Shown here one piece after another: positions 4,628-53,061 of a stretch of DNA of 64,000 nucleotides. A program made the translations under genes and the position numbers. The notes beneath the pieces were generated by a model. It saw only the letters and a program-made list of their open reading frames with translations. It was not told where the DNA came from and ran no database searches. Position 1 is the first letter of the stretch; every line of letters begins with the position of its first letter. This DNA comes from a virus, in IMG/VR virus record IMGVR_UViG_3300028412_000004, positions 1 to 64,000 of that record. The stretch is one strand, 5' to 3'.

Positions 4628-4695
4628 ACCGCCAACCATAAAACAATAAAATTGAACAAGGACGCTGACTGGCGGTTCAAAGCGACGCCTTGTTC
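4628..4695 (+). promoter_or_regulatory. Candidate RNA pseudoknot, copy 1
   Basis: In this gap, 4628-4634 (ACCGCCA) can pair with 4670-4676 (TGGCGGT), while 4654-4661 (GAACAAGG) pairs with 4688-4695 (CCTTGTTC). The order A-B-A'-B' makes an H-type pseudoknot with an A-rich first loop. It ends 15 nt before ATG 4711. A related element with different pairing sequences lies at 9774-9842. This suggests a cis-regulatory RNA, but no ligand or class is recognised. Confidence 0.45.
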
Positions 4696-4710
4696 GGGAA
4701 TCAAATTATA

Positions 4711-4920
4711 ATGAAAATCGACATAGCGAAAGAAGACCTATGGTGGCTGCGCGAAGCCGTAAAACTATTCATCATCACGATGGAAAATTGCCCGAACCCA
4801 GCGGCGTACTCGAAATGCCCACATGTGGTGAGGAAGGCGTACAAGAAACTCTCGACAGCAATGAGGGGGTGGGATTATGAAGAAAGATATTTTCCGAACG
4901 TGGAGGTGAATCATGCATGA
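4711..4920 (+). CDS. Small hypothetical protein, 69 aa
   Basis: The ATG at 4711 is preferred over the in-frame 4690 because it follows AAATTATA, the local start context. The protein is helical (DLWWLREAVKLFI) with two cysteines. It sits directly behind the pseudoknot, so it is the likely regulated gene if that element is a riboswitch. It overlaps the next gene by 8 bases. Confidence 0.5.
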   Translation: MKIDIAKEDLWWLREAVKLFIITMENCPNPAAYSKCPHVVRKAYKKLSTAMRGWDYEERYFPNVEVNHA

Positions 4921-5170
4921 GCAGCATACTGGATTGAATCAAGTTCTTGGTTCGCTTTTTTGGAGACGGCGCTCGACTGGAACGCACCGCTATTTGAAAG
5001 TCCTGACGGATAGGGGATGTCGTGAAACTGGCTATTACATCTGGCCACATCTTAACGGAAAAACGTTCCATGCCTGTATCGAAGGTCGACAAGATCTAGG
5101 GAAGTTCAAGAACTCCTTAGAGGCGCAGACTTTTTGTGAGAATCATTACTTAGAGCACTGTGAATACTAA
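4913..5170 (+). CDS. Hypothetical protein, 85 aa
   Basis: Basic, with RRRSTGTHRYLKVLTDRG and a C-terminal AQTFCENHYLEH. That end resembles the KOW-like protein at 3201 (REACESHYLAN), so the two may be distant relatives. It overlaps the neighbours at both ends. Confidence 0.5.
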   Translation: MHEQHTGLNQVLGSLFWRRRSTGTHRYLKVLTDRGCRETGYYIWPHLNGKTFHACIEGRQDLGKFKNSLEAQTFCENHYLEHCEY

Positions 5171-5522
5171 TACACAGAAAGGCCGGGAGAAACCGACACC
5201 CAGGTACACCTTGCCAAGCCGGCTATCAAACTTCCTGGGAAGGTGGGGCGAGTATGACCTCTACTTCGACTCTGATTGTTGTATTGCTCGCTACGGCGAC
5301 AAGCCTCACGAGTATCTGGCGGGAGACTGGGAGACGTACAAAGAACAGGCACTCAGCGGTCGTGTATCCTTAGAAAACCAACACCGCAGCCCTACACTTG
5401 AGTGCTTCTTCAGGGCTTACCGCAACAAACTAATCATAGAGGTAGAATGCGCTTCGAATGGCAAGGGCGTTGCTCTGCCTGACGGCATACGAAAAGGACA
5501 GGGAGCGGAAAGAGCGCGGTGA
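5160..5522 (+). CDS. Hypothetical protein, 120 aa
   Basis: Starts at GTG 5160 inside the previous gene. Aromatic-rich middle (WGEYDLYFDSDCCIARYG, WETYKEQAL). The start codon is uncertain because no ATG fits. No domain is recognised. Confidence 0.45.
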   Translation: MNTNTQKGREKPTPRYTLPSRLSNFLGRWGEYDLYFDSDCCIARYGDKPHEYLAGDWETYKEQALSGRVSLENQHRSPTLECFFRAYRNKLIIEVECASNGKGVALPDGIRKGQGAERAR

Positions 5523-5604
5523 AATACCGCTACGAACAACCTACCCGCTGTAGAACACTACCCCGGTACAGCTACAAAATCTAACAACAAACCAAAAGGA
5601 TAAT

Positions 5605-5967
5605 ATGCAAAAAGAAGATACAAATGTAAATGTAGGCTCGGTAATGGGTCGGCTAGCTCGACTGGTTCGACTGGCAAGTAAATGGGCTTGGCGCGAAGAA
5701 TTAGGACGGTATCAAAACGTCACTGAGGACGCCCAGTCATTAGTTGACGCTCTTATGCGTGGAGAACCGGCAAACGCCTATTGTGGGTATGGTCGATACG
5801 GTCAAGCGTCAAACTACCGCGACGAACTGAAGTGTTCGCTCCGTGACCTGAAGTCGAACGATGAGGAGTTGGTAGCTCCCGCTAGTTATGTGAGACCGTC
5901 CACCCGAGGCGAGCTGCACGACAAGCTAGAACAGGGTATCGAGTGCGAGGTAGAGAATAGTGCTTGA
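5605..5967 (+). CDS. Hypothetical protein, 120 aa
   Basis: Shares its 26-nt start region with the gene at 3482, then diverges completely. It contains RLARLVRLASKWAWREELGR and GYGRYGQ. The last codons overlap the -35 box of the IS607 promoter, so the transposon sits exactly at its 3' end, and the native C-terminus may have been replaced on insertion. Confidence 0.5.
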   Translation: MQKEDTNVNVGSVMGRLARLVRLASKWAWREELGRYQNVTEDAQSLVDALMRGEPANAYCGYGRYGQASNYRDELKCSLRDLKSNDEELVAPASYVRPSTRGELHDKLEQGIECEVENSA

Positions 5968-5991
5968 CTACTTAGGCAAACCTAGCATAAT
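5964..5991 (+). promoter_or_regulatory. Promoter of the IS607 element
   Basis: TTGACT (5964-5969) and CATAAT (5986-5991) are spaced by 16 bp, a good sigma-70-type promoter. Between the boxes lies the inverted repeat TAGG-CAAA-CCTA (5973-5984). A repeat in the spacer is the usual operator position for MerR-type proteins, and TnpA carries a MerR-like N-terminus, so autoregulation is plausible (inference). Confidence 0.55.
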
Positions 5992-5999
5992 GTCTGTAA

Positions 6000-6617
6000 A
6001 TGGAGCAGAGATTAATAAAGATAGGGGATGCAGCTAAGCTGTTGGGAACCACCGTAGATACAATGCGCAAGTGGGATGCTTCCGGGGAAGTAGTTCCGGC
6101 GCGTAAGACTAGAGGGGGTACGCGCTACTACGATTACAATGAGCTGGTAGGCAGCTCCTCTAGTGAGCTGCCTACCATATGTTATGCTCGTGTGAGTTCT
6201 CACTCTCAGAAAGATGACCTAGAACGTCAGCACGCATCTCTCGAGGCCTACTGCGCCGCCAAGGGGTGGAGAAGTGAAACAATAAAAGATCTAGGCTCAG
6301 GGATGAACTACCGAAAGCGCGGGCTACATAGCTTGCTAGAAATGATCCTGCGTAAACGCATGAAGCGGCTTGTATTAACACACAAGGACAGGCTCCTGCG
6401 TTTCGGGGCCGAGCTGGTATTCGCTATGTGTGAACACCAAGGCATAGAAATTGTTATAATTCATAAAGGAGAGCAGCCTTCTTTTGAAGAAGAGTTAGCC
6501 TCCGATGTGTTGGAGATCATCACCGTATTCTCCGCGCGTCTGTATGGTTCAAGAAGCCACAAGCACAAGAAGCTACTTAACACTCTGGAGGAAGAATGTT
6601 CGCAGCCCACAAAATAG
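6000..6617 (+). CDS. tnpA: IS607-family serine transposase TnpA
   Basis: 205 aa, the usual length. Residues ~5-48 form a MerR-like helix-turn-helix (KIGDAAKLLGTTVDTMRKW, then TRYYDYNEL). Residues ~59-190 are a serine resolvase catalytic domain with YARVSS (catalytic Ser66 or Ser67), the LERQ segment and a DRLLRFG arginine motif. It cuts and joins DNA through a phosphoserine link to move the element. The linker between the domains is encoded by a perfect 13-bp hairpin. It overlaps tnpB by 22 bases. Confidence 0.9.
   Translation: MEQRLIKIGDAAKLLGTTVDTMRKWDASGEVVPARKTRGGTRYYDYNELVGSSSSELPTICYARVSSHSQKDDLERQHASLEAYCAAKGWRSETIKDLGSGMNYRKRGLHSLLEMILRKRMKRLVLTHKDRLLRFGAELVFAMCEHQGIEIVIIHKGEQPSFEEELASDVLEIITVFSARLYGSRSHKHKKLLNTLEEECSQPTK
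6145..6177 (+). other. 13-bp hairpin inside tnpA linker
   Basis: 6145-6157 (TGGTAGGCAGCTC) is perfectly complementary to 6165-6177 with a 7-nt loop. It encodes the junction between the MerR-like and resolvase domains (residues ~49-60). It may be an operator, a translation pause or a structural accident. Confidence 0.6.
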
Positions 6618-7777
6618 AACTACGCCCCACGCAAGCGCAGGCAGACTACATGGATCAGGCGTGTGGCAGCCGCAGGCATTGCTATAACCAGCTCCTAGCA
6701 CGCTTCAAGGAAGACGGTGTTAAGTGGAGTAAGAAGGACGCTTACGCCTACTATATGGAGACCATACGAACACAGTTTGATTGGTATGCGGAGGTGTCAT
6801 CCCGGGTAACCCGCAACGCGATTGATGACCTGGATGCCGCCTTTAAGCATTTCTTTAGGCGCGTAAAGTTGGGGCAGAAGCCGGGGTTCCCTACATTTAA
6901 GCGGAAAGACAGGAATGACTCATTCTCTATGCGTGAAGTTAGTAAGTTCACTGTAGCGGGGAGAACACTGCGTATCGAAAAGCTAAAGACCCGGATTAAA
7001 ATGCGACAACGCATTAGATTTAATGGGGGCGTTAAGCAGGTTACTATCAGTAAGCGGGCAGGTAAATACTTCGCCTCTTTTATGGTAGAGACCGCAGATG
7101 TGTCTGCTCCTCTAAATCAAGCAGGATCTGTTGGAGTAGATCTGGGAATTAAAGAACTTGCTGTATTAAGCGATGGGGCGGTAATCCCAGCTAGTCAGCC
7201 TTTAAAAAGATCCTTAAAGAAATTAAAGACAAAACAGAAGAAGTTGTCACGTAAGCAGAGTGGAAGCAACCGACGCGCAAAAGCCAAGTCGTCGATTGCC
7301 CTACTACATTACAGGGTGGCAAATCAACGAGCAGCAGTGTTGCACGAACTATCAGACTATCTAACGAAAACCTACAAGCGCGTAGTGCTGGAGGATCTAA
7401 ACGTCAAAGGTATGGTTAAAAACCATTGCCTGGCTCGTGCGATATCCGATGCAGGGTTTGGGATGTTTCGACAGATGGTTGAGTATAAAGCCAAATGGCG
7501 CGGGGTGGAAGTTGTCCTTGCAGACAGGTTCTTCCCTTCAAGCAAAACTTGCTCTGATTGCGGCGCGGTAAAGTCAATGCCCTTAAACCAGAGAACCTAC
7601 GAATGTTCGTGCGGTATGTTGAAGGACAGAGACTTAAACGCAGCAATTAACTTAAACAATTACGGTCGCGACACGCTAAAGCGAGACCTTAAACGAACAC
7701 AGGAGAAACGTCAGACTTGCAGAAATGTAAGCCGTTTTGTTAACGGTGTTAATTTACCAACGGCTAGATTAGCCTAG
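6596..7777 (+). CDS. tnpB: TnpB RNA-guided nuclease (IS607-associated)
   Basis: 393 aa, typical TnpB length. It begins with the family-type MFAAHKIELRPT. The RuvC acidic triad is present: Asp182 in GVDLGIKE, Glu266 in VVLEDLNV, Asp346 in DRDLNAAINL. The zinc-finger cysteines are there too (CSDC at 319-322 and CSC at 337-339). TnpB proteins use a transposon-end RNA to cut matching DNA and help keep the element in the genome. All catalytic residues being intact suggests recent activity. The gene has no start signal of its own and is probably translated by coupling to tnpA. Confidence 0.93.
   Translation: MFAAHKIELRPTQAQADYMDQACGSRRHCYNQLLARFKEDGVKWSKKDAYAYYMETIRTQFDWYAEVSSRVTRNAIDDLDAAFKHFFRRVKLGQKPGFPTFKRKDRNDSFSMREVSKFTVAGRTLRIEKLKTRIKMRQRIRFNGGVKQVTISKRAGKYFASFMVETADVSAPLNQAGSVGVDLGIKELAVLSDGAVIPASQPLKRSLKKLKTKQKKLSRKQSGSNRRAKAKSSIALLHYRVANQRAAVLHELSDYLTKTYKRVVLEDLNVKGMVKNHCLARAISDAGFGMFRQMVEYKAKWRGVEVVLADRFFPSSKTCSDCGAVKSMPLNQRTYECSCGMLKDRDLNAAINLNNYGRDTLKRDLKRTQEKRQTCRNVSRFVNGVNLPTARLA
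7730..7774 (+). ncRNA. Candidate 3' part of the omega RNA
   Basis: TnpB guide RNAs overlap the 3' end of tnpB and run to the element's right end. Here 7730-7736 (AGCCGTT) pairs with 7759-7765 (AACGGCT), and GGCTA 7762-7766 can form a small hairpin with TAGCC 7770-7774. The 5' limit and the guide boundary cannot be fixed by eye. Confidence 0.4.
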
Positions 7778-21218: not shown

Positions 21219-21517
21219 TGTCTGGACTACGTTACTGGAAGAGCTGCGTTGACTTCTCTCCAGGCGACACCAGTGCGTTGTTTGAGATGATCGACGACGC
21301 TATAACCGTCACGCGGCGCACGTTCCTGAAGCACGTAGATGCAGCTTCGCGTCTACAGCTAGAGAAGGCGCTGAGTTACGAGACGCATGCGAAACGTGGT
21401 CTTACCTGTGCGGGGGACTACCACGTCAGCTACCACAGATCAAAATACAACGGACGGAGGGTTTACTTCATGAGGCACTCGTCCATTGAGCATATCTTCC
21501 GAGAGGAGGTTCCTTGA
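21218..21517 (+). CDS. Hypothetical protein, 99 aa
   Basis: The start overlaps the DUF932 stop. Basic, with YHVSYHRSKYNGRRVYFMRHS. Not recognised. Confidence 0.5.
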   Translation: MSGLRYWKSCVDFSPGDTSALFEMIDDAITVTRRTFLKHVDAASRLQLEKALSYETHAKRGLTCAGDYHVSYHRSKYNGRRVYFMRHSSIEHIFREEVP

Positions 21518-21822
21518 GCGCGGAGAAGGTAGACTCAGCGCGCCCAGAAACTTGGCGCTGGGTTAATGCCGGCACCCCCAAAGACCCCGCATCGCGCTTG
21601 TTGTGCCACGCTGCCATGAGTTTGAAACAATTCATTCTTATGGCGGAGGCTATACAAGTGCAGAAAAAAGGTCCGCGTACTTTTGTACAGCGGGCTCATA
21701 GTAAAGTATTTCAGAATAATCTGGAATACGCACAAGATTTAGCAGATGGTGCCCCCGTCCATACCTTCCAAAAGGATGGTCGGGACTATGTGTTAAAATT
21801 AACGCCGCAAGGCAAAAAATAG
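21514..21822 (+). CDS. Hypothetical protein, 102 aa
   Basis: TTG at 21514 overlaps the previous stop; the in-frame ATG at 21616 (MSLKQF) is an alternative. The C-terminus (YVLKLTPQGKK) is strand-like. Not recognised. Confidence 0.5.
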   Translation: MSAEKVDSARPETWRWVNAGTPKDPASRLLCHAAMSLKQFILMAEAIQVQKKGPRTFVQRAHSKVFQNNLEYAQDLADGAPVHTFQKDGRDYVLKLTPQGKK

Positions 21823-24274: not shown

Positions 24275-24545
24275 ATAGATGTAACACACCGTTACATCTA
24301 TCCCAAGCTCTCCTCACACTGCTCGATATAGTGTGCTTGGTTAGGCGTGTCCGCCTACGAGTTTGGGGAAGGGTATGGAAGTAACCCTAGTCCTAAAGGA
24401 CCCCGTCCGCGGGCGGTCTTCCCCCAGCCTGGTCATGCAGACGACATGGTCAGACTGGGTAATTTTAACCACCCGTCCGGCAGTAATATTAACAATCAAA
24501 TTAGAAAAAGTTATTATTGAGAGAGCTGCCTGGACGGGTCCTATT
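24275..24545 (+). promoter_or_regulatory. Hairpin-rich leader of the deformylase gene
   Basis: Consecutive stems are 24275-24285 with 24291-24301 (11 bp), 24315-24320 with 24330-24335, 24342-24347 with 24352-24357, 24370-24374 with 24384-24388, a nested set within 24423-24459, and 24471-24483 with 24526-24539 (about 12 bp with one bulge). The last stem ends six bases before ATG 24546 and covers GGACGG, the only Shine-Dalgarno-like bases. It could gate translation. An open frame passes through from 24363 but looks artificial. Confidence 0.6.
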
Positions 24546-25031
24546 ATGCTAAAACTAAAGTTAATACGCAGAGGGGATCCTGAAGAAGGGATCCTGTCAG
24601 AAAACCTCTTAACGTCTCATCCTGCGGACCCTGCAGAGGTCCGCAGGATTGTTAAGCAGGTGAAAAAGATATGCCGCCTCAAGAGAGGAGCTGGTTTATC
24701 CGCGAACCAGGTTGGTGTAAGGATGGCGTTTTTCTTTATATCTCCGGCGGCATGCGACACACGTAAAAACATGTTCGTATTAAACCCTATCATCACGGAG
24801 CTGGACGACGAGAGAACTACTCGTGTAGAGGGATGCCTATCACTACCTGGACGCGAGTTCGAGGTAGAGAGGCCGGCGGCTGTGACCGCTAGATATGAAG
24901 ACGAACATGGACGTCAACGCCTGGAGCGCTTCGCAGGCTGCGCTGCGCAGGTGTTTCTCCATGAATACGATCATCTCCTCGGGAAGACTCTCGAGGACAC
25001 AGGAAAGGAAATAAAAAATGAAGAAGAATGA
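24546..25031 (+). CDS. def: Peptide deformylase
   Basis: 161 aa from ATG 24546, close to the usual PDF length. Motif 1 GAGLSANQVG (48-57), motif 2 EGCLSLPG (Cys97), motif 3 HEYDH (His139, Glu140, His143). It removes the formyl group from new proteins using a bound metal. Phage deformylases often replace the host enzyme during infection. The first 110 bases can also form a 12-bp hairpin (24619-24649), so translation is probably controlled. Confidence 0.9.
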   Translation: MLKLKLIRRGDPEEGILSENLLTSHPADPAEVRRIVKQVKKICRLKRGAGLSANQVGVRMAFFFISPAACDTRKNMFVLNPIITELDDERTTRVEGCLSLPGREFEVERPAAVTARYEDEHGRQRLERFAGCAAQVFLHEYDHLLGKTLEDTGKEIKNEEE

Positions 25032-25434: not shown

Positions 25435-25938
25435 ATGGATAAGAATAAGATTGTAGACCAACTACGTCAGTTTGGCGTACGGGAGGACCAGATACCATCC
25501 GTGTTGGCGGATGTGGCCTACCACCTGCAGGAGTTCGGCGTAGCTCAAATATTTGGCATGCCTGACGGAACGCTAAAGGTAGGGGCTACGAGTCCTGACG
25601 CTGGTGCACCTTTATCAGGAACAGACTGCAAGGAGGAGGCGTTTGAGGAGCACCCCAGTGATGTTATGCGTCGCGACCTTGCACTATACGCGGACATATT
25701 GTCCGTGTCAGAGCATACTACTGAAGCGCTGCGAGACAAGCTAGAGCGCATGAAGCAAGCTCTAGAAGTAAAATTGGGTGAAGATGTTGAAGACTACATC
25801 TCGCATACCCAGTTGGAGACGCATAAAGCGTCCGGGGATCGCGCAAAGGCGGAACTCCATGCATGGCAAGAAGCCGTGCACGGAGGCAATACAATGTTGT
25901 CCTTCCAAGACTGGAAGGACTCCTCCCTACCTGTATAA
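25435..25938 (+). CDS. Hypothetical protein, 167 aa
   Basis: Helical with an acidic coiled-coil-like middle (TTEALRDKLERMKQALEVKL). Its last codons are covered by a 7-bp hairpin (25927-25933 with 25941-25947), 13 bases before the terminator stem. Not recognised. Confidence 0.5.
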   Translation: MDKNKIVDQLRQFGVREDQIPSVLADVAYHLQEFGVAQIFGMPDGTLKVGATSPDAGAPLSGTDCKEEAFEEHPSDVMRRDLALYADILSVSEHTTEALRDKLERMKQALEVKLGEDVEDYISHTQLETHKASGDRAKAELHAWQEAVHGGNTMLSFQDWKDSSLPV

Positions 25939-33210: not shown

Positions 33211-33245
33211 AAGCGCCCAGCGAATTAGACAATCGTTGGGCGCTT
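33211..33245 (+). terminator. Terminator-like hairpin before the hairpin-tiled gene
   Basis: AAGCGCCCA (33211-33219) pairs with TGGGCGCTT (33237-33245), with a further three pairs inside, then TTTCGTCT. A smaller stem (33189-33193 with 33203-33207) precedes it. Confidence 0.55.
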
Positions 33246-33283
33246 TCGTCTGTGGTATGTTATAACAAGCAAGGAAGGAAAAT

Positions 33284-34204
33284 ATGGACCCCAAGAAGAA
33301 AATGAAACTAAACGGGTTAGAGAGCGCCATGAGCGCCCTCAAACCCGTTCACAGCCGCCGGCGCTCCAAGCCTGCAGGGCGAGCGGTACATAAAAAGTCC
33401 ACCAGCGTGGTGGACTTAGAGTGCACGGAAGTCCACCAGGACTTCCTGGTCGTAGTTAAGGCGGGGCTTTGCCTCGTCTTGGATGCTGCGAACAAATCCG
33501 GGGTGACGACCTCGGATCTGTACGGCAAGGTGCCGTATCACAAGTTAGCGGCGGATTACTTCCGCCAAAATTGTGACGCTACACCTTTCTCGGTTATGCG
33601 CTTTTATAAGAAAGCGCGTCGCTGGGCACTCTCCCCTCAGACCTTCCCCTTAAAACAGGGAGAGTCTAACAACTCTAAGACAAAAGTCTTAGAGTTGCGG
33701 AGGGCTCCGACGGCCCTGTACGTCTTCCGCGGGGTAGCCCGCGCTGCCTCCAAGGCAGGCATTACTGAGACAGCCAATACACGGCTGGCGCAATACAAAA
33801 ATCTGCCTCTAGGACTTTTTCACAGCTTGTACAAGCTGGAAAATAAAATGGTCGCAGAATACGCGACCATGCGAGGTAATCCACCTGCGGAGCTGGTCAC
33901 CCCGCAGGTGATTGAAAAAGCTGAGGAGCTGGCTCCTAAAGCTGAGGAGCCAGCTCCTAAAGCTGAGTCCACAGCGCAGCTGCACTCAATCCGGGTGCAG
34001 TTAGCGGAGTATACTGACGACGGTCAGTATATTCAAAACTGGCAAGAGGAGTGGGACATCGAGGCCCCCTCCCACGCTGCGGCTTGCGCCTCAGCGCGCC
34101 AGCGCATAGAAAACAGGGATCCAGACTGGGTCCCTGTTAAGAAAGGTTCCGATTACCAACAGGTCATCGGAACCATATTGACGGACGCAGTTGCGTCCGT
34201 CTAG
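33284..34204 (+). CDS. Unrecognised protein encoded by hairpin-tiled RNA, 306 aa
   Basis: A basic, helical N-terminus (RRRSKPAGRAVHKKS), a middle with DYFRQNCDATPFSVMRFYKKARRW, an acidic repeat (KAEELAPKAEEPAPKAE) near residue 215, and a last domain with IRVQLAEYTDDGQYIQNWQEEW. I do not know the family. The coding sequence is packed with inverted repeats (separate entry), which may constrain the protein or be its reason for being. Its palindromes are in frame and no stop interrupts them. A strong terminator follows nine bases after the stop. Confidence 0.55.
   Translation: MDPKKKMKLNGLESAMSALKPVHSRRRSKPAGRAVHKKSTSVVDLECTEVHQDFLVVVKAGLCLVLDAANKSGVTTSDLYGKVPYHKLAADYFRQNCDATPFSVMRFYKKARRWALSPQTFPLKQGESNNSKTKVLELRRAPTALYVFRGVARAASKAGITETANTRLAQYKNLPLGLFHSLYKLENKMVAEYATMRGNPPAELVTPQVIEKAEELAPKAEEPAPKAESTAQLHSIRVQLAEYTDDGQYIQNWQEEWDIEAPSHAAACASARQRIENRDPDWVPVKKGSDYQQVIGTILTDAVASV
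33311..34201 (+). other. Tiled array of about 24 RNA hairpins
   Basis: Stems I checked by hand include 33395-33404 with 33408-33417, 33427-33434 with 33439-33446, 33458-33467 with 33471-33480 (two G-U), 33496-33504 with 33509-33517 (one G-U), 33521-33527 with 33531-33537, 33670-33681 with 33686-33697 (12 bp), 33848-33855 with 33863-33870, 33882-33890 with 33902-33910, 33924-33937 with 33945-33958 (14 bp), 34010-34018 with 34023-34031, 34112-34122 with 34128-34138 (one G-U), 34145-34153 with 34166-34174 and 34180-34189 with 34192-34201. All differ in sequence. The G-U pairs occur on the + strand, so pairing is preserved in the mRNA rather than in its complement. Confidence 0.85.
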
Positions 34205-34213
34205 GTTCATTTT

Positions 34214-34250
34214 CACCGCGGGGGACTGGAGACAGTCCCCCGCGGTGTTT
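34214..34250 (+). terminator. Very strong 15-bp terminator
   Basis: 34214-34228 pairs perfectly with 34233-34247 around GAGA, GC-rich, then TTTGAATTTT. It closes the hairpin-tiled gene and separates it from the late region. Confidence 0.8.
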
Positions 34251-37080: not shown

Positions 37081-40035
37081 ATGCCACTGGGTATTAAAGA
37101 CAACGTCATTCAAGATGTTCTGGAAGAAGATGTAGACGTAGAGTTCACCAACTCGAATAAATTCTTTGGGTCGCACGCTAATCTGGTCCCGCTACAGTCG
37201 GCTGTGGCAGCCCCGCGTATATTCTACGGATCCCGCTTCATGAACCAAGCCCTCCCACTTATAGGAGCAGAGGCTCCTTTAGTGCAGAATCTCAACAGTG
37301 ACGATGAGCAGGGTCGCTCGTTCGACGAGCTGCAAGGCCGCGCGTCCGGCGCAGTGTTCTCGGACAGCGATGGACGTGTGAAGGATATTACGCCGGACTA
37401 CATCACCCTCGAAACTCCCGACGGTAAAGAGGTTCGTAGAAACCTCTACAACAACTTTATTTTCAACCGGAAAACTTCCATACATAACACGCCTCTAGTA
37501 GAGCTGGGGCAGTCGGTGAAAGCAGGACAGCTTTTAGCTAAGTCAAACTTCACAGATGATAAAGGCACGCTAGCGATGGGTCGTAATGCTCGCGTAGGCG
37601 TGGTTCCCTACAAAGGCTTCACAATGGATGACTCGATCGCAATTAGCAGCGACTTCGCCGGGAAGCTGTCTAGTGAGCATACCGAGACCTACAGCTTGGA
37701 GAAGGACAAAGTTATTAAAAGCGGCCTAAACCACTTCATCAGCCTGTTCCCGGATAAATACACCAAAGCGCAGAGAGCCACTATAACGCCCGACGGTGTT
37801 GTTAAAAAAGGTACTATCTTACAGGAGGGAGATCCTATGATACTCGCCTCTAAACCTCGTATGGTATCCAGCTCCGCCTCTCAGATGGGTAAGTTGTCGA
37901 AGGTCATGCGGGAGTCCCGCACAGATGCCAGCCAGCTGTGGGAATCCTCGAAGCCTGGTAAGGTGTTGGATGTCGTCAACACGCCCAAAGGTATTAAAGT
38001 TGTTGTACAGTCGATTAAACCTGCAGAGGAAGGTGATAAGATAGTCTACCGCTCCGGTCAGAAAGGGATCATATCTAAGATTATCCCAAACGAGCACATG
38101 CCTCGCACCACTGATGGTAAGCCTCTAGAGGTGCTGCTTAATCCACTCAGCATACCCAGTCGCGTGAACAACTCGATCATCTACGAGATTCTTTTAGGAA
38201 AGATCGCGCAGAAGACTGGTAAACCTATCAAGATGCCTGGCTTCACAAAACCTGGAGAAGAATGGTTCGACATCATACAGCGTGCTCTTGATGAAGCAGG
38301 TCTATCTGACACAGAGGAAGTATTTGATCCAATGTCAGGTAAGACACTGCAGAACCCGATCACCGTCGGCAACGGCTATGTCTTAAAGCTGCACCACACC
38401 GGTGCGTCGAAAGCATCCGCGAGAGGACAAGGAAGTTACTGCTACGACGAAGAAACTGAAGTACTCACTGACACAGGTTGGACAGCGTGGCCTGCTGTAA
38501 ACGCATCTCACAAATTGGCAACTCTCGACGATAGTGACAGTATTGTATTCCAGAAGCCTTCTGAACTCATAGCACAGGACTACTCAGGTGAGATGTATGG
38601 GTTCAAGGAGAGTAATTACATAGACTACCTAGTTACACCAGAACACGACCACTGGGTTAAGTTCCGCGGACCCGTATCTGAATACAGGAGGGTGAAAGCT
38701 AAGGATCTACACGGTAAAATGTTTTATGTAAAGCGGCAGGGCTTTAAATACACAGGAGGAGTAGATCCTAAGAGTACCACCATCCTGGAAGACGGACACG
38801 TCGAGCCTATAAAATTCGACTGGGGCGACTATGTTGAATTCATGGGTTGGTGGCTTACGGAAGGGTCTGTGCGTTTAAATGAGAACACCTCAGAGAATGA
38901 GGTCTACATACGGCAGAGCAAGCACACCAGTGAAGCTAACTTTTACAGAATCCAAAAACTTCTGGATCGTGTGGGCATCGCATACAGGGTCCACACAAAC
39001 AAAGAAAAGCAGAGTTTGGGATTCTGTATGAGCAGTAAGGCGCTGGCTCGACATCTTAAAGAATCCTGCGGTGGATCCGAGTGTGGTAATAAATCCATCA
39101 CACACACACTACTACACGCCTCGTATGCTAGTAGGATGCTTCTATACAATGTCATGATGCTGGGCGATGGTTGTCTAAGCACAGGAGTATACACCACATC
39201 ATCTAAAGCTCTCATAGACACTTTCCAGATCCTGGTAACAGGCTTGGGCTGGTCCGCAGTACCGCACTGCAGGGAAGTAAGGCCGACGACAGATGGCCCT
39301 GTATCGAACCCGGTCTACGAGACTACTACGTCGAAGAAGCGCGCTAACGCGCTGATACAGCAAGCACCTAGATACTCTGGAAAATTTTACACGAAACACT
39401 ACGAAGGTAGAATATATTGCGCAGTCATGGGAGGACGTGGATTACTCTACGTGCGTAGGTGTGGTAAGCCAATGTGGTCCGGTAACTCGCTCGACCAGCA
39501 GCCACTCAAAGGTGGTAGTGAAGGAGGTAAGGCTAAACGCTTCTCCGGGCTAGAGGTCGGCTCAATGCTGTCGGCCGGTGCCTACAAAACTTTACGGGAG
39601 GGCTCCACACTTCGCGGACAGCAGAATGACGAGTATTGGAGGCAGCTACGCCAGGGTAAAACACCCAGACGCCCCGGTGAACCTTTTGTTTGGCGTAAGT
39701 TCCAGACCTTGTTACAGGGCGCTGGTATGAATCCTCGCGACATGGGCGGAGGACAATTACGACTAGGCCCGCTCACCGAGACAGAGCTGCAAAAACGCAA
39801 ACCTTTCGAAATACGCAATGGGAAGATGGTTAACCTAAACTCGCTGGAACCTGAAGCTGGCGGGTTGTTTGACCCCGCTTTGGTAGGGTCTGGTAAGTGG
39901 GGCAAGATTCCGCTCGACATGGCTCTACCAAACCCTGCTTTCGAAAAACCTATACTGCGTTTACTGGGACTTACTCAGAAAGATTTCAACGCTATCATGG
40001 CTGGCGAAATGGAATTACCAGAGCGGTTGCGATAA
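37081..40035 (+). CDS. rpoB: RNA polymerase beta, C-terminal half, with intein
   Basis: 984 aa including a 349-aa intein. The extein part matches bacterial beta from about E. coli residue 650: FFGSHANLVPL, GRNARVGVVPYKGF then DDSIAIS, GDKIVYRSGQKGIISKI and LLNPLSIPSRVNNS. After the intein comes SLDQQPLKGG, the normal QQPLGGK region. The N-terminal half of beta is absent and must be a separate gene outside this window. It would build part of a phage-encoded multisubunit polymerase. Found among virion genes, so it may be packaged. Confidence 0.93.
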   Translation: MPLGIKDNVIQDVLEEDVDVEFTNSNKFFGSHANLVPLQSAVAAPRIFYGSRFMNQALPLIGAEAPLVQNLNSDDEQGRSFDELQGRASGAVFSDSDGRVKDITPDYITLETPDGKEVRRNLYNNFIFNRKTSIHNTPLVELGQSVKAGQLLAKSNFTDDKGTLAMGRNARVGVVPYKGFTMDDSIAISSDFAGKLSSEHTETYSLEKDKVIKSGLNHFISLFPDKYTKAQRATITPDGVVKKGTILQEGDPMILASKPRMVSSSASQMGKLSKVMRESRTDASQLWESSKPGKVLDVVNTPKGIKVVVQSIKPAEEGDKIVYRSGQKGIISKIIPNEHMPRTTDGKPLEVLLNPLSIPSRVNNSIIYEILLGKIAQKTGKPIKMPGFTKPGEEWFDIIQRALDEAGLSDTEEVFDPMSGKTLQNPITVGNGYVLKLHHTGASKASARGQGSYCYDEETEVLTDTGWTAWPAVNASHKLATLDDSDSIVFQKPSELIAQDYSGEMYGFKESNYIDYLVTPEHDHWVKFRGPVSEYRRVKAKDLHGKMFYVKRQGFKYTGGVDPKSTTILEDGHVEPIKFDWGDYVEFMGWWLTEGSVRLNENTSENEVYIRQSKHTSEANFYRIQKLLDRVGIAYRVHTNKEKQSLGFCMSSKALARHLKESCGGSECGNKSITHTLLHASYASRMLLYNVMMLGDGCLSTGVYTTSSKALIDTFQILVTGLGWSAVPHCREVRPTTDGPVSNPVYETTTSKKRANALIQQAPRYSGKFYTKHYEGRIYCAVMGGRGLLYVRRCGKPMWSGNSLDQQPLKGGSEGGKAKRFSGLEVGSMLSAGAYKTLREGSTLRGQQNDEYWRQLRQGKTPRRPGEPFVWRKFQTLLQGAGMNPRDMGGGQLRLGPLTETELQKRKPFEIRNGKMVNLNSLEPEAGGLFDPALVGSGKWGKIPLDMALPNPAFEKPILRLLGLTQKDFNAIMAGEMELPERLR
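38440..39486 (+). other. Intein in RNA polymerase beta, 349 aa
   Basis: Starts at Cys454 (CYDEETEVLTDTGW) and ends RRCGKPMWSGN before Ser803. It has a block-B TPEHDHW, a LAGLIDADG-type pair (FMGWWLTEGS; NVMMLGDGC) and the typical last block. It interrupts the GSY/SLDQQP junction near the clamp end of beta. Splicing blocks and both endonuclease motifs are present, so it may be active and homing-competent. The penultimate residue is Gly rather than His. Confidence 0.92.
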
Positions 40036-40404: not shown

Positions 40405-40797
40405 ATGAAAAAAGGAATCAAAAAAGCTGGCCGCATGGCCACATCCGCAGTAATCACATCCTCTGCTTTCACAGGTAAATACCTGTGTTTAGGGCTCGCC
40501 GCCCCGCTGACTCTGATCTCCGCCACGGCGGAGCTCGGGCGGAAGCCCCTAAAAAAGGGCCAGGCAAGCTGCACGGAGGTGCTCGACCTCACAGAGGTCG
40601 AACGCTCGGAGGTGCGAATCATCCGCGCGAAGGCGCGGCTGATTCGCGCTAACGAGCGCCTCGAGTGCGCGAAGCACCGCGCCCTCGAGGTAGAAGCAGC
40701 GCGTGAGCAACGCGCTGCTGCGCGTGAGCAGCGCGCAGCAGCAAAGGAGGCAGTAGCGGCTAACGCCGCAACTGTCGGCGATCTCGTCAACGCCTAA
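40405..40797 (+). CDS. Unrecognised small protein from hairpin-rich RNA, 130 aa
   Basis: A basic start (MKKGIKKAGR), a hydrophobic stretch (YLCLGLAAPLTLISATA), then a strongly charged helix (ERSEVRIIRAKARLIRANERL) and a repeat (AAREQRAAAREQRAAAKEA). Coiled coil is likely. Its coding sequence contains hairpins: 40470-40477 with 40480-40487, 40518-40524 with 40527-40533, 40584-40590 with 40594-40600, 40614-40620 with 40641-40647, 40659-40665 with 40684-40690, 40697-40704 with 40710-40717 and 40718-40724 with 40732-40738. Function is unknown. Confidence 0.5.
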   Translation: MKKGIKKAGRMATSAVITSSAFTGKYLCLGLAAPLTLISATAELGRKPLKKGQASCTEVLDLTEVERSEVRIIRAKARLIRANERLECAKHRALEVEAAREQRAAAREQRAAAKEAVAANAATVGDLVNA

Positions 40798-42747: not shown

Positions 42748-42797
42748 TCTAGCAGTCTACGCTTGCATACTTAGAGGTGTTATTTTTCAATGTAAGT

Positions 42798-43337
42798 ATG
42801 ACCACTAGCATATACTCCTCTGAAAAAGCTCTTAACCTTTTAGCGAATCTATCTTCGTTTAACAAACGCGCATTTCAACCGGCTCCGCCGCCGCAGGGCG
42901 CGATGCCTCCTGGTGTGGATCCCTCAATGATGCCCCCTGGTGCGATGCCTCCTGGTGTGGATCCCTCAATGATGCCTCCTGGTATGGATCCCTCGATGAT
43001 GCCTCCTGGAGCGATGCCCCCTGGCGCGATGCCTCCTGGTGCGATGCCCCCTGGCGCGATGCCTCCTGGTGCGATGCCTCCTGGTGCGATGCCTCCTGGT
43101 ATGGATCCCTCGATGATGCCTCCTGGAGCGATGCCTCCACAGCCTGCTGGCGTTAACCCAGAAATAGAAACCATGCTCAGTGAAGTGTTGGGCGGCATGG
43201 AGCAGATGGCATTGGTGTTGGAGCAGGAAAAAGCCGAGAAGGCTGAAATGGCACAGCGTCTTGAGAGTATGTCTTCACGAATGAATCAACTGGAATCTTT
43301 TTTTAAACAATCGGACAGCGCTCCAGCAGGAGTTTAA
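42798..43337 (+). CDS. Pro/Met/Gly repeat protein, 179 aa
   Basis: Residues ~35-120 are repeats of MPPGAMPPG and MPPGVDPSMM type. The C-terminal ~60 residues form a coiled coil (LEQEKAEKAEMAQRLESMSSRMNQLE). ATG 42798 is preferred to GTG 42777. Possibly a virion or assembly protein, with repeat number prone to change. Confidence 0.55.
   Translation: MTTSIYSSEKALNLLANLSSFNKRAFQPAPPPQGAMPPGVDPSMMPPGAMPPGVDPSMMPPGMDPSMMPPGAMPPGAMPPGAMPPGAMPPGAMPPGAMPPGMDPSMMPPGAMPPQPAGVNPEIETMLSEVLGGMEQMALVLEQEKAEKAEMAQRLESMSSRMNQLESFFKQSDSAPAGV
42900..43135 (+). repeat. Imperfect 15- and 27-nt repeats
   Basis: GCGATGCCTCCTGGT units alternate with GTGGATCCCTCAATGATG-type units over about 235 bases. They encode the MPPG repeats. 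Confidence 0.85.
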
Positions 43338-47158: not shown

Positions 47159-48229
47159 ATGATCGAAGATATTGAAAATGGAGAATCCGGCGCAGTCGTC
47201 CGGGGTAAACTGAATGCCGCTTTAGCTGAAATCAATAACCTCGGCACCGCCGCGCTGCTCGACACTGGTAGCGGGATTGGGGAAGTAATCATCTCTGAAG
47301 CTACAGCACCCGTCACCCTGCAGCCCGTCGTATGGGGAGCAGCAGGAGGTGTTGATCAATCGACGTTCCCAGAGTTTCTTAGTAATCTGAACGCCGCCCG
47401 AGGCGTAGATCTGCTCGATGAGAATACTGGATTCACTCAGGCACAAATTCAAGCATCCGAGGCAGTCATCCAGGACGAGTTGACCGCCCTCGACGCCGCG
47501 ATCACGCAGACGGATGCCGACACTGTAGCGGCACTTGCGCTCAAGCAAGACATACTGGCAGAAGGCGCGTTCGTGGATGGCGATAAGGACAAACTGGATG
47601 CCGCTTTCGCCAATCAACTTAACCTCACCCTCTTAGTAGGTGCAGCAGACGCAGTGACAGGCTTCGCTCTGGATGCTATTCCTGATTATTGGAAAAGCGG
47701 CGTAACCACGATCACCGCTGCTCATATCGGAAACAGCGTAACGAGCATCGGCAGCTCCGCATTCTACAGCTGCACTGCCCTAACCTCCGTCACTATCGGA
47801 AACAGCGTCACAACCATCGGCAGCTCCGCATTCTACTCCTGCACTGCCCTAACCCCCATCACCATCCCAGACAGCGTCACAACCATCGACAGCTACGCAT
47901 TCCATTACTGCACTGCCCTAACCTCCATCACCATCCCAGACAGCGTAACGAGCATCGGCATGTCCGCATTCGGCTTGTCTGGTCTAACCTCCATCACCAT
48001 CCCAGACAGCGTCACAACCATCGGCAGCTACGCATTCCAATACTGCACTAGCTTAACATCCATCACCATAACAAGCGTGCCTGCCGCCGCTTGGACAGGA
48101 ACAAACGGGCTTTTAAGCACAACATTACTTACCGACATCAATATCACGGCAGATGTGTTCGCTCAGTATGACGGGGCATGGCGCACCGCTCAAAGCGTTG
48201 ATCCTAGCGTAACCCTCAACTCAATCTAA
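47159..48229 (+). CDS. BspA-type leucine-rich-repeat fibre, 356 aa
   Basis: Residues 1-60 start like phage tail fibres (GAVVRGKLNAALAEINNLG). Residues ~190-310 are five 23-aa repeats (SVTSIGSSAFYSCTALTSVT type, LRR_5/BspA) that form an adhesive solenoid. The C-terminus has a repeat-free part with AAAWTG. It probably recognises a cell-surface receptor. The repeated DNA allows the number of repeats to change. Confidence 0.8.
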   Translation: MIEDIENGESGAVVRGKLNAALAEINNLGTAALLDTGSGIGEVIISEATAPVTLQPVVWGAAGGVDQSTFPEFLSNLNAARGVDLLDENTGFTQAQIQASEAVIQDELTALDAAITQTDADTVAALALKQDILAEGAFVDGDKDKLDAAFANQLNLTLLVGAADAVTGFALDAIPDYWKSGVTTITAAHIGNSVTSIGSSAFYSCTALTSVTIGNSVTTIGSSAFYSCTALTPITIPDSVTTIDSYAFHYCTALTSITIPDSVTSIGMSAFGLSGLTSITIPDSVTTIGSYAFQYCTSLTSITITSVPAAAWTGTNGLLSTTLLTDINITADVFAQYDGAWRTAQSVDPSVTLNSI

Positions 48230-50055: not shown

Positions 50056-53000
50056 ATGAAAGCGGTTGATCTGCTCATAGACTCACTCCTACCAGAGGAG
50101 CTACAAGGCACGGTAAAAGACATGGACTCCAAGTCATTGGATATCCTGATGTCAGCTATCGCCACCAAATACCCGGATAAATACGAAGCTATCTCTAAGG
50201 GTATCGCCGACGCTGGTAGGAATGCCAGCTATCTACAGGGTGAGACTATCACCCTCAACGACATGCGCACGCCGTTCGACAAGTCGAGCATACTGGCTGC
50301 CATGGACAAAGAGCTGGACCGGGTTAGACAGGCTAATCCGGAGACATTTCCCAAGACCCGAGTAAAGGTTTGGGAGAAGTATAATGACATCATGCAGAAT
50401 ATGACGAGTCAGAGTGCTCGTGAGAAGAACAATAATTTAGCCTACAGTGTCGTCTCCGGTGCGCGTGGTAAGCCTGCTCAACTTAAAGCTATGCTGGCTA
50501 CACCAGGCTACTACGCCGATTATAAGGGCGACACCATTCCCCTGTTCGTCCGTAACAGCTTCGGCCAGGGACTACGCCCTGCAGAGTTCCTTGCAGGCAC
50601 TTACGGCGCGCGGACTTCCGTCTTGTCGACAAAGAACTCCACCGCCCGTGGTGGGGATTTCGCAAAGCAGCTTGGGCAGAGTGCCGCTTCCACCATTGTG
50701 ACGATGTTGGATTGCGGTGTTAAAAATGGCATAGATCTGGAGCTGGAAGATAGTTCAATGCGCGGGCGTGTGCTGGCAAGAAGCACCGCAGGGGTGCCGG
50801 CCGGTACCATACTGGACAAGCACGCGCTCGGACAACTTCGTAGAAGTAAATCGGATACGGCCGTAGTGCGATCCCCCTTAACCTGTCAGGCTAGGGAAGG
50901 TGTGTGTGCTAAGTGTGTAGGCCAGTTCCACAACAACAAGCTCCCCTCGGTGGGAGATGCTGTAGGTATTACGGCCGCGCAATCGATCTCCGAACCAGTT
51001 ACGCAAGGCGCTCTGAACTGTTTAGCAGAGAACACCGAAGTTCTCATGGGCGACTTTTCCTATAAAAAAATCCAAGACGTCAGAGTTGGGGACATGGTAA
51101 TGGGGGCGGACGTCGAAGCACACTTATTCCCGGTAAAGGTAACACATACATGGGATCAAGGTTTACAGCCCGTCCAGACGTATGGTTACAAGCTGGGGCA
51201 GACGAAGGATATCCGGGAGGTTGTTTGCACAGAGGAGCACAAAATTTTACAGATTACGACCTACAGTAACGCAAAAGAGGGAAAGTTTAATTTCACCCCC
51301 AGGATACTTAAAGCAGGACGCCCCGCTGGGTTACCTTCCGCCGTATTACCCTCTGGGTTCAAAGAAGGTGTAGGAATTGAGGAGGATTTCGCCACGCTTT
51401 ATGGGTTCCACCTGGGAGACGGCATCCGCTTGAGTCCAGAGTGTTTACAAGCCTCCGTGTGTGTTTCTTGCGCTTGCTCCGAGACAGCAGCCGATCTTAA
51501 AACAGAGATGGCTAAGTTGGGCCTCACGATGAAGAAACGTAAGCGTAGCCACGACTGGGCTGTGTCGGATCTACAGAAAGGAACTAGTCTTGTAGACGCT
51601 AAGGGGCAGTTCGAGAAAGGTTTCCATAATCGTTATAAGCTGCTGCTCCAATCATTAGGGGCTTTGCATGAATGCTACCACAATAAAGTAATAGCACCTG
51701 TGGTTTGGGAGTGGGATAACAAGTCTATCGCCAAAATGATTGCCGGGTTTGTGTCCGCGGACGGATCTGTATACAGAGTCAAGGAATTGACACCAGGTGT
51801 GTCTTTTGGATCTACGGCGCTGTCGATGCTGGAAGAGTTGAAGCGCTTACTTGAATTAAGGTTTGGCATCTACAGCACACAACTCACACGAACGTCCCTA
51901 GCCTCTAAGAGCGAAACAAGGAAGCACGACGGCTGGCAATTCTGTATCACACGCCGAGATCAGCTTAAAAAGTTCAACGAACTCATAGCACCATTTATAC
52001 CAGGCCCTAAAAGAGAAAAACTGAGACAATACCTAGAGGAGGCTCCAAAGTCTCACTACGAGACGTCCACTTTCTATAAAGGCCGCCGTATTTACGCCGA
52101 ACCCAAAGGTATGACGCAGTGCTACGACATAACCGTGGACCACAAGGATCATTTGTTCGTGTTAAGAAATGGCTTAATTGTAAGCAACTCCAAGCACACT
52201 GGCGGTATGGCTTCCGGTAAGCGTGAGTATTCTGGCTTCGACGTCATCAATCAACTCGTCCAATCCCCCGAGGTGTTCCCCGACCGCGCCACCGTCGCAC
52301 ATGAGGCCGGTCGCGTGGAGTCCATCACAGAAGCCCCGCAGGGTGGTTTCTACATTAAACTAAATGGGAAGGACCTATACGTACCCGCTGGTTACGACGT
52401 CACTGCAAAGGTCGGTGATAAGGTGGAGGCTGGCGACCAACTCTCCGACGGTATTGTCGACCCTGAGGACATCATGAAGTTGAGAGGGCTGGGGTCCGGT
52501 CGCCGGTATTATGCCGAGCGTCTTAATAAGGCTTTGACCGATTCAGGTATGGCCGTCGATCGTCGCAACGTGGAGCTCGTATCTAGAGGAGCGTTCGATC
52601 ATGTGAAGATACAGGACGACGAGGGTATGCCAGGCTACCTCCCGGACGACGTAGTTAGTTACAATAAACTCACATCACATGCAGCTCCTGCGAAGGACGC
52701 GAAAGGCATGCGCCCGAGTCAGGCTGTGGGTAAGTTCCTGGCGACGCCAGCGCTGCACTACTCGATAGGTACTAAAATCACACCTCGAATGGCAGATAGG
52801 TTAGAGAAGTCTCACTACGATAGCATCTACACCTCCGATAGGGAGCCTAGTTTTACACCACAGTCAGTACGGCTACGCACTGCTGCGCACAGTAATCCTG
52901 ACTGGCTCGCATCCATGGCCACTTCTTACTTGAAAACTCAGCTAGAGCATGCTGCAATACGGGGAGACGATACCAATGTTAACTCAAACGTGCACTTCGG

Positions 53001-53061
53001 ACCTCGTCTAGCAAGAGGGACAGAGTTCGGCAAGGATGTCGCAACAACAGGTAAATTTTAA
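50056..53061 (+). CDS. rpoC: RNA polymerase beta-prime, C-terminal half, with intein
   Basis: 1001 aa including a 390-aa intein. The extein carries a four-Cys zinc site (Cys220, then Cys277, Cys284, Cys287), SGARGKPAQLKAML, NSFGQGLRPAEFLAGTYGAR and GDAVGITAAQSISEPVTQG. It continues from the 41596 gene. It retains trigger-loop sequence after the intein (SKHTGGM). It completes the catalytic beta-prime part of a phage polymerase. Confidence 0.95.
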   Translation: MKAVDLLIDSLLPEELQGTVKDMDSKSLDILMSAIATKYPDKYEAISKGIADAGRNASYLQGETITLNDMRTPFDKSSILAAMDKELDRVRQANPETFPKTRVKVWEKYNDIMQNMTSQSAREKNNNLAYSVVSGARGKPAQLKAMLATPGYYADYKGDTIPLFVRNSFGQGLRPAEFLAGTYGARTSVLSTKNSTARGGDFAKQLGQSAASTIVTMLDCGVKNGIDLELEDSSMRGRVLARSTAGVPAGTILDKHALGQLRRSKSDTAVVRSPLTCQAREGVCAKCVGQFHNNKLPSVGDAVGITAAQSISEPVTQGALNCLAENTEVLMGDFSYKKIQDVRVGDMVMGADVEAHLFPVKVTHTWDQGLQPVQTYGYKLGQTKDIREVVCTEEHKILQITTYSNAKEGKFNFTPRILKAGRPAGLPSAVLPSGFKEGVGIEEDFATLYGFHLGDGIRLSPECLQASVCVSCACSETAADLKTEMAKLGLTMKKRKRSHDWAVSDLQKGTSLVDAKGQFEKGFHNRYKLLLQSLGALHECYHNKVIAPVVWEWDNKSIAKMIAGFVSADGSVYRVKELTPGVSFGSTALSMLEELKRLLELRFGIYSTQLTRTSLASKSETRKHDGWQFCITRRDQLKKFNELIAPFIPGPKREKLRQYLEEAPKSHYETSTFYKGRRIYAEPKGMTQCYDITVDHKDHLFVLRNGLIVSNSKHTGGMASGKREYSGFDVINQLVQSPEVFPDRATVAHEAGRVESITEAPQGGFYIKLNGKDLYVPAGYDVTAKVGDKVEAGDQLSDGIVDPEDIMKLRGLGSGRRYYAERLNKALTDSGMAVDRRNVELVSRGAFDHVKIQDDEGMPGYLPDDVVSYNKLTSHAAPAKDAKGMRPSQAVGKFLATPALHYSIGTKITPRMADRLEKSHYDSIYTSDREPSFTPQSVRLRTAAHSNPDWLASMATSYLKTQLEHAAIRGDDTNVNSNVHFGPRLARGTEFGKDVATTGKF
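51019..52188 (+). other. Intein in RNA polymerase beta-prime, 390 aa
   Basis: Starts at Cys322 (CLAENTEVLMGDF) and ends LRNGLIVSN before Ser712. LAGLIDADG-type motifs YGFHLGDGI and IAGFVSADGS are present. It lies between Asn321 and Ser712, immediately before the trigger-loop His (SKHTGG), equivalent to E. coli His936. Removal is needed for an active polymerase, so splicing is essential if the gene is used. Confidence 0.92.

What the first reader, a model, noticed from the sequence alone, without database searches (positions are those of the whole stretch)
33311..34250. An open reading frame tiled with two dozen different RNA hairpins
Within 890 bases of the 306-aa ORF I find about 24 local inverted repeats with 5-14 bp stems and mostly 2-12 nt loops, one following another with little gap. 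By my own count roughly 390 of the 890 bases lie in these stems. The stems do not share sequence, so this is not a repeat family. Several have G-U pairs on the + strand (for example 33458-33480 and 34112-34138), which would be mismatches in the complement, so the structure appears to matter in the transcript. A 15-bp terminator follows. I see nothing comparable in the ligase or helicase genes. Possible roles are an RNA decoy or sponge, a structured mRNA with a dual function, or mutation by template switching.
Basis: partly seen in the sequence, partly recalled or inferred. Interest (0 to 1): 0.88.

Follow-up and report, generated by a model that had tools for sequence, protein, structure and literature searches.

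The report
Phage gene packed with coding hairpins
A 306-codon orphan gene of a large, uncultured bacteriophage is written so that its message folds into about two dozen perfect little hairpins, far beyond chance, and distant relatives of the phage keep similar hairpins inside other genes; whether the hairpins do a job in the RNA or are left by a copying error of the DNA is not yet settled.

Summary
The ORF 33284-34204 is a real coding gene and the most palindrome-rich of 905 ORFs screened in this phage and its relatives: 24% of its bases lie in perfect inverted repeats of 7 bp or more, against a mean of 1.7%. Its local folding energy (-424) was never approached by 300 codon-preserving shuffles (mean -271, best -311; z -13). 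Ligase and helicase genes show nothing similar. The stems are mostly perfect Watson-Crick, strictly local (arms less than 45 nt apart), and almost as strong on the antisense strand (z -11). A modest bias of G-U pairs to the sense strand (p about 0.013) points to the transcript. No homologue of the protein was found, so covariation cannot be tested on this gene. In six relatives, two other genes near rpoB carry coding hairpins whose stems change on both sides and stay paired, so coding hairpins are maintained in this phage group. Best reading: an mRNA whose hairpins are kept for the transcript and are probably created or perfected by local template switching. The main rival is neutral template switching in a weakly constrained orphan gene. 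Decoy and sponge roles are untested.

The parts
33284..34204 (+). 306-aa orphan ORF tiled with coding hairpins
   Evidence: codon-usage log-likelihood 0.174 bits per codon in frame against -0.24 and -0.09 in the other frames, like other genes of the phage
33271..33279 (+). AAGGAAGGA, Shine-Dalgarno-like; the first ~27 nt of the ORF are almost unpaired
   Evidence: sequence; fold
33211..33245 (+). hairpin upstream of the gene (13-nt arms, 92% complementary); possible terminator of the preceding unit, weak T run
   Evidence: I5
33311..33349 (+). hairpin, 17-nt arms 88% complementary
   Evidence: 0.2% of random synonymous versions as stable
33395..33438 (+). AAGTCCACCA / TGGTGGACTT / AAGTCCACCA: three copies of one 10-mer in alternating orientation
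   Evidence: D3, I13, I14
33427..33446 (+). 8-bp hairpin, loop ACCA
33458..33480 (+). hairpin with two G-U pairs on the + strand
33598..33617 (+). 7-bp perfect hairpin (longer with G-U)
33670..33697 (+). 12-bp perfect hairpin, loop AAAA
33823..33838 (+). CAGCTTGTACAAGCTG, 16-nt perfect palindrome
   Evidence: I11
33848..33870 (+). 8-bp perfect hairpin
33882..33910 (+). 9-bp perfect hairpin
33917..33958 (+). two 21-nt tandem units (KAEExAP) that differ only by TG versus CA in the palindrome centre; together they form a 14-bp perfect hairpin at 33924-33958
   Evidence: D1, I4
34007..34034 (+). 12-nt-arm hairpin (one G-U), over the predicted beta turn of the C-terminal domain
34112..34138 (+). 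13-nt-arm hairpin with one G-U
34145..34174 (+). 13-nt-arm hairpin, loop AACA
34180..34201 (+). 9- to 10-bp perfect hairpin ending just before the stop codon
34214..34247 (+). 15-bp hairpin, loop GAGA, then TTTGAATTTT: intrinsic-terminator-like
40405..40797 (+). second, weaker hairpin-rich gene (130 aa); a tandem AREQRAA repeat at about 40699-40740 whose units differ only by synonymous codons, giving an 11-bp perfect hairpin (40714-40742)
   Evidence: codons read

Best explanation
A genuine protein-coding gene whose sense transcript is kept highly folded. After an almost unpaired ribosome-binding and start region, the mRNA folds as it is made into a string of 20-25 short, independent hairpins, ending at a terminator. 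The stems are probably created and repaired at the DNA level by local template switching between near-palindromic arms, which makes perfect Watson-Crick stems in one step, and are then retained because a folded transcript is advantageous. The most likely advantage, which is inferred and not shown, is protection of the message from single-strand-specific RNases together with slower, paced translation. Shown: the excess of structure, its locality, real coding, a modest sense-strand bias, and maintenance of coding hairpins by paired changes in relatives. Inferred: template switching as the source, and mRNA protection or pacing as the benefit.
For: Energy z is -13.1 on the sense strand, with 0 of 300 codon-preserving shuffles near it; 13 perfect hairpins of 7 bp or more against 1.2. 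It ranks first of 905 ORFs for perfect inverted repeats, so it is gene-specific and not a genome-wide mutation bias. T4, lambda and phiKZ genes reach at most -3.9, -6.1 and -3.9 on the energy-excess scale where this gene scores -9.8. Wobble energy is biased to the sense strand here (p 0.013) and in 40405 (p 0.037). Coding potential is normal, and part of the C-terminus is predicted as a beta-beta-alpha unit from one sequence (residues 228-284 pLDDT about 80; isolated 80-aa domain mean 71). The start region is almost unpaired. In 40405 the two heptad repeats differ only by synonymous codons, which complete a perfect stem. In relatives, hairpin H1 (FWMAAIVAAIQ) is paired in 98.5% of cells with 5 of 13 pairs changed on both sides and covariation above all 500 shuffles; H3 in the zinc-ribbon gene likewise.
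Against: Antisense structure is nearly as strong (z -11.1) and G-U pairs are scarce (6.5%). Stems use the three codon registers about equally (7/10/8), unlike what selection on RNA under a fixed protein would favour; in L036:4686-5276, a clearly sense-biased gene, the same register counts (1-1, 3-3, 2-2 types) are 6/2/8 and mismatches are 11 G-U to 1 A-C. Across the 20 most palindromic ORFs the wobble bias is not significant (-0.58 +/- 0.34 against -0.20 +/- 0.27). There is no homologue of this gene, hence no covariation test on it. No data on transcript abundance, decay or translation.
Confidence: 0.48

Rival explanations
1. Neutral template-switch mutagenesis: a polymerase folding back on nearby inverted repeats repeatedly converts imperfect palindromes into perfect ones. 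The gene is a fast-evolving orphan that tolerates the resulting multi-base changes, so palindromes accumulate without any RNA function.
For: Stems are mostly perfect, local (arms under 45 nt apart; no excess at 45-200 nt), nearly strand-symmetric and indifferent to codon register. One 10-mer is present three times in alternating orientation, and two 21-nt tandem units differ by exactly an inversion of the palindrome's central TG/CA. Template switching is known to homogenise inverted-repeat arms and invert spacers in yeast coding DNA (PMC8604942) and to create perfect RNA stems (PMC8794818).
Against: Only two genes of about 144 in this genome are affected strongly, although many are small orphans; a general mutational process should mark more. 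The sense-strand wobble bias is not expected. The 40405 repeat perfects its stem by synonymous changes only.
Confidence: 0.33
2. DNA-level function: the palindromes act as cruciforms or single-strand DNA hairpins (protein docking, origin or packaging region), with the coding sequence written around them.
For: Strand symmetry of the structure and perfection of the stems.
Against: No shared stem sequence that a sequence-specific protein could read, the palindromes stay inside one ORF plus its flanking hairpins, the sense wobble bias, and similar hairpins lie in unrelated genes of relatives.
Confidence: 0.08
3. The transcript is a decoy or trigger for a host factor that binds short hairpins (RNase III, a defence sensor), or the encoded basic-N-terminal protein binds its own hairpins.
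For: Many diverse hairpins in one transcript. [quoted passage not shown] The N-terminus of the protein is lysine- and arginine-rich.
Against: Nothing tested here points to a specific binder; fold and family searches of the protein gave no significant match.
Confidence: 0.07
4. Chance, composition or assembly artefact.
For: Low-complexity coding and whole-genome amplification can create false inverted repeats (general knowledge).
Against: Codon-preserving shuffles exclude composition. The ORF stays open with normal codon usage for 306 codons and ends in a terminator. Similar hairpins recur in independent contigs with compensatory changes.
Confidence: 0.02

Closest known systems
Coding palindromes in nematomorph mitochondrial genes (PMC6649704)
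   Same: Perfect inverted repeats embedded in translated genes, with no shared repeat sequence; template switching and selection both proposed; function unknown.
   Different: There the repeats are long (up to 284 bp) and the codon-pairing phases are unequal. Here they are short (stems up to 14-15 bp), very dense in one gene of a dsDNA phage, and codon phases are about uniform.
Template-switch-generated hairpins and arm homogenisation (PMC8794818, PMC8604942)
   Same: Perfect arms, spacer-inversion-like repeat, local scale.
   Different: Those are scattered single events inferred from relatives; here some 20 hairpins are concentrated in one gene and no ancestor is available for comparison.
Selected mRNA structure in coding regions (viral mRNAs, PMC6563262; genome-wide ordered structure of RNA viruses and ssRNA phages, from general knowledge)
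   Same: Folding far beyond codon-preserving controls, with a sense-strand bias.
   Different: Single gene of a dsDNA phage, almost exclusively local perfect hairpins, few G-U pairs.
Rickettsia palindromic elements (selfish inserts in ORFs; cited in PMC6649704)
   Same: Palindromes inside open reading frames.
   Different: Those are copies of one element; here the stems do not share sequence.
Structured RNA from staphylococcal phage terminase genes that activates a CBASS cyclase (PMC10686824)
   Same: A structured RNA transcribed from phage protein genes, with a biological consequence.
   Different: No sensing partner is known here and the structure covers a whole orphan gene.

Membership tests
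Selected structured mRNA | Folding more stable than codon-preserving shuffles | tested here: met
   z -10 to -13, 0 of 300 shuffles near
Selected structured mRNA | Sense-strand specificity (G-U kept, A-C not) | tested here: inconclusive
   wobble asymmetry p 0.013, but mismatches 6 G-U to 3 A-C and antisense z -11
Selected structured mRNA | Compensatory changes in homologues of this gene | not testable with these tools
   no homologue in viral contigs, phages or genome contigs; met for other coding hairpins of relatives
Template-switch-generated hairpins | Perfect local inverted repeats, strand-symmetric, any codon register | tested here: met
Template-switch-generated hairpins | Multi-base change or spacer inversion relative to an ancestor | not testable with these tools
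   no relative; only an internal hint, 21-nt units differing by the inverted centre TG/CA
Template-switch-generated hairpins (neutral) | Excess expected in weakly constrained genes generally | tested here: not met
   strong palindrome excess confined to 33284 and 40405 in this genome
Nematomorph-type coding palindromes | Perfect inverted repeats within translated ORFs | tested here: met
   (translation itself is inferred from codon usage)
Nematomorph-type coding palindromes | Long arms (repeats up to 284 bp) and unequal codon phases | tested here: not met
   longest perfect stem in the ORF 14 bp; phases 7/10/8
Rickettsia palindromic elements | Copies of a common repeat family | tested here: not met
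   17 inverted repeats without common sequence
Known RNA family | Match to an Rfam model | tested here: not met
   only two tRNAs in the window
Intrinsic terminator (34214-34247) | GC-rich stem followed by a T run | tested here: met
   15-bp stem, TTTGAATTTT

The most novel reading that the evidence does not exclude
Phages with multisubunit RNA polymerase repeatedly write some of their genes as strings of perfect coding hairpins that are maintained over long evolutionary times, so that one DNA stretch serves both as a protein gene and as a structural RNA. This gene is the extreme example.
Probability: 0.3. Interest if true: 0.82.

Novelty: new variant of a known kind. Interest (0 to 1): 0.62.

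Why it matters
Coding sequence and strong structure normally compete. A gene that satisfies both over its whole length, with relatives showing paired changes in other coding hairpins, gives a tractable case for asking whether perfect hairpins arise by selection on RNA or by template switching, a question usually studied only in rRNA, microRNA genes and mitochondria. If the transcript is the target, it may reveal an mRNA-protection or timing strategy in phages that carry their own RNA polymerase.

Tried and rejected
Homologue searches for the 306-aa protein, its middle part and its C-terminal domain in viral contigs, phages and bacterial or archaeal genomes: none. Pfam, PHROGs, NCBIfam and PDB by sequence: nothing convincing (phrog_899 at E 0.012 only). 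AlphaFold on the single sequence: mean pLDDT 44, but a beta-beta-alpha unit at residues 228-284 of about 80; Foldseek against the PDB: no match below E 0.4. The closest relative, L008, has the neighbouring acetyltransferase gene in place but no counterpart of this gene; it has a few hairpins in a largely intergenic stretch nearby. Counting single-mismatch hairpins by type gave too few events. Ranking genes by sense energy and then comparing strands is circular; it was replaced by selection on symmetric palindrome density, which removed the group-wide sense bias. Long-range repeats as a sign of duplication: no excess at 45-200 nt, a slight one at more than 200 nt. Artefact and chance were rejected for the reasons given under rivals.

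Full report
WHAT WAS CHECKED. The window is the first 64 kb of a 125,531-bp viral record of a phage with its own multisubunit RNA polymerase: rpoB and rpoC pieces at 37081, 41596 and 50056, two of them carrying LAGLIDADG endonuclease domains. Its RpoB is at most 52% identical to any relative found. The flagged ORF, 33284-34204, is preceded by a Shine-Dalgarno-like AAGGAAGGA and followed by a 15-bp terminator hairpin. Codon usage is that of the phage's other genes in this frame only (0.174 bits per codon against -0.24 and -0.09), so it is most likely a translated gene and not a non-coding RNA that happens to be open.

IS THE STRUCTURE REAL? Yes. Folding without G-U finds 25 helices of at least 5 bp and puts 38% of the ORF's bases in such stems, against 14% for the average stretch of the window. 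Shuffling synonymous codons among their own positions, which keeps protein, codon usage and composition, never approaches the native energy: -424.1 against -271.1 +/- 11.7, best of 300 shuffles -310.7. Thirteen perfect hairpins of 7 bp or more are seen where 1.2 are expected. Of 20 hairpins picked from the fold, 19 are more stable than at least 97% of random synonymous versions of the same peptide; the choice was post hoc, so this is descriptive only. Ligase and helicase genes are ordinary. Among 905 ORFs of this phage and about 80 relatives this gene has the largest fraction of bases in perfect inverted repeats, 24.3% against a mean of 1.7%; the second is the same genome's ORF region at 40.4 kb. 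On the sense-energy scale it ranks fourth of 1,340 ORFs, and the stretches of T4, lambda and phiKZ examined have no gene like it.

RNA OR DNA? The evidence is mixed. For RNA: when G-U pairs are allowed, the energy gain is larger on the sense than on the antisense strand compared with shuffles, z -2.3, p 0.013 here and p 0.037 for 40405; the start codon region is almost free of structure; the gene is a gene-specific outlier. For DNA: the antisense strand is nearly as structured (z -11), G-U makes up only 6.5% of pairs, mismatches inside stems are 6 G-U, 3 A-C and 9 others, and the stems fall about evenly into the three codon registers. A contrasting gene in another phage, L036:4686-5276, shows what clear sense-strand selection looks like: 11 G-U to 1 A-C mismatches, wobble z -5.1, and one register depleted. 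The inverted repeats are strictly local: 36 8-mer inverted pairs within 45 nt against 2.8 expected, and no excess at 45-200 nt.

HINTS OF HOW THE STEMS AROSE. One 10-mer occurs three times in alternating orientation at 33395-33438. The longest perfect hairpin of the ORF (14 bp, 33924-33958) is made of two tandem 21-nt units that differ only by TG versus CA in the middle, that is, by an inversion of the palindrome's centre. Both are what template switching produces, as described in yeast genes (PMC8604942) and RNA genes (PMC8794818), but neither proves it without an ancestor. In the second gene, 40405-40797, two tandem copies of the heptad AREQRAA differ only by three synonymous codon changes (CAA/CAG, GCT/GCA, GCT/GCA), and these help complete an 11-bp perfect stem (sequence). 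That points to retention of the stem while the protein is kept.

RELATIVES. Screening the relatives led to a more informative case. In six distinct contigs (L096, L098-L102; RpoB about 34-37% identical to this phage) two small genes read away from rpoB contain coding hairpins. In the end of a small membrane protein, FWMAAIVAAIQ, a 13-bp stem with a 3-nt loop is found in five contigs: 64 of 65 cells are Watson-Crick pairs, 5 of 13 pairs show changes on both sides, often in the paired third codon positions, and no G-U occurs (covariation above all 500 shuffles and all slid controls). At the start of the neighbouring zinc-ribbon protein (GRLRxRLxAExGGxP) a nested stem covaries likewise, with 9 G-U to 2 A-C cells in its inner helix. 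A third stem between them is not significant. These are few sequences, and paired changes could also come from template switching, but they show that near-perfect coding hairpins persist in this phage group while the DNA changes. A further separate example is a MYG1-family gene of the phage contig L036 (Pfam E 2e-31): a recognisable conserved protein written with many palindromes and without sense bias.

JUDGEMENT. The most economical account is a combination: stems are formed and perfected at the DNA level by local template switching, and in this gene they are retained because the folded sense transcript is useful, most likely by shielding the message from single-strand RNases and pacing translation. 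The first half is inferred from form; the second rests on gene-specificity, the modest wobble bias, the synonymous completion of the 40405 stem and the relatives. The exact benefit is a guess. Purely neutral template switching in a tolerant orphan gene is the main rival and cannot be excluded; its weakness is that the many other small orphan genes of the genome are not affected. Decoy, sensor or self-binding roles are possible but untested.

KNOWN OR NEW? Perfect palindromes inside translated genes are known from nematomorph mitochondria (PMC6649704), where they are longer and their codon phases are unequal, and selected coding structure is known from RNA viruses. A dsDNA-phage gene tiled end to end with short, unrelated, near-perfect coding hairpins was not found in the literature searched here, which is limited to open-access papers. 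I therefore rate it a new variant of a known kind.

Noticed in passing
L096, L098-L102 around 1413-1545 (also L042, L045, L047, L057, L062, L069): Two small genes read away from rpoB in relatives carry coding hairpins with strong compensatory changes, including synonymous third-position pairs; a good system for separating RNA selection from template switching.
   Followed up: partly
L036:4686-6630: Two adjacent hairpin-rich genes in another phage: one (4686-5276) with a clear sense-strand G-U signature, the other (5374-6630) a MYG1-family gene full of palindromes without strand bias.
   Followed up: partly
40405-40797: Second palindrome-rich gene of this genome: a heptad repeat (AREQRAA) whose units differ only by synonymous changes that help perfect a hairpin.
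   Followed up: partly
21514-21822, 24363-25031, 25435-25938: Further ORFs, one with a peptide deformylase domain, with folding well below synonymous shuffles and somewhat sense-biased.
   Followed up: partly
37081-40035 and 50056-53061: RNA polymerase subunit genes interrupted by LAGLIDADG (and Hint) domains, i.e. likely inteins in split rpoB and rpoC.
   Followed up: no
6000-7777: Pair of ORFs that read like an IS607-type serine recombinase and a TnpB-like protein (from sequence, not tested).
   Followed up: no
42777-43337 and 47159-48229: Collagen-like MPPGAMPPG repeats and BspA-like SIGSSAFYSCTALTSV leucine-rich repeats in ORFs of the structural region (from sequence).
   Followed up: no
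33395-33417, 33848-33870, 33924-33958 (minus strand): Three of the coding hairpins are followed by T-rich stretches on the minus strand and score as terminator-like for antisense transcription; the number in the region is not above chance.
   Followed up: no
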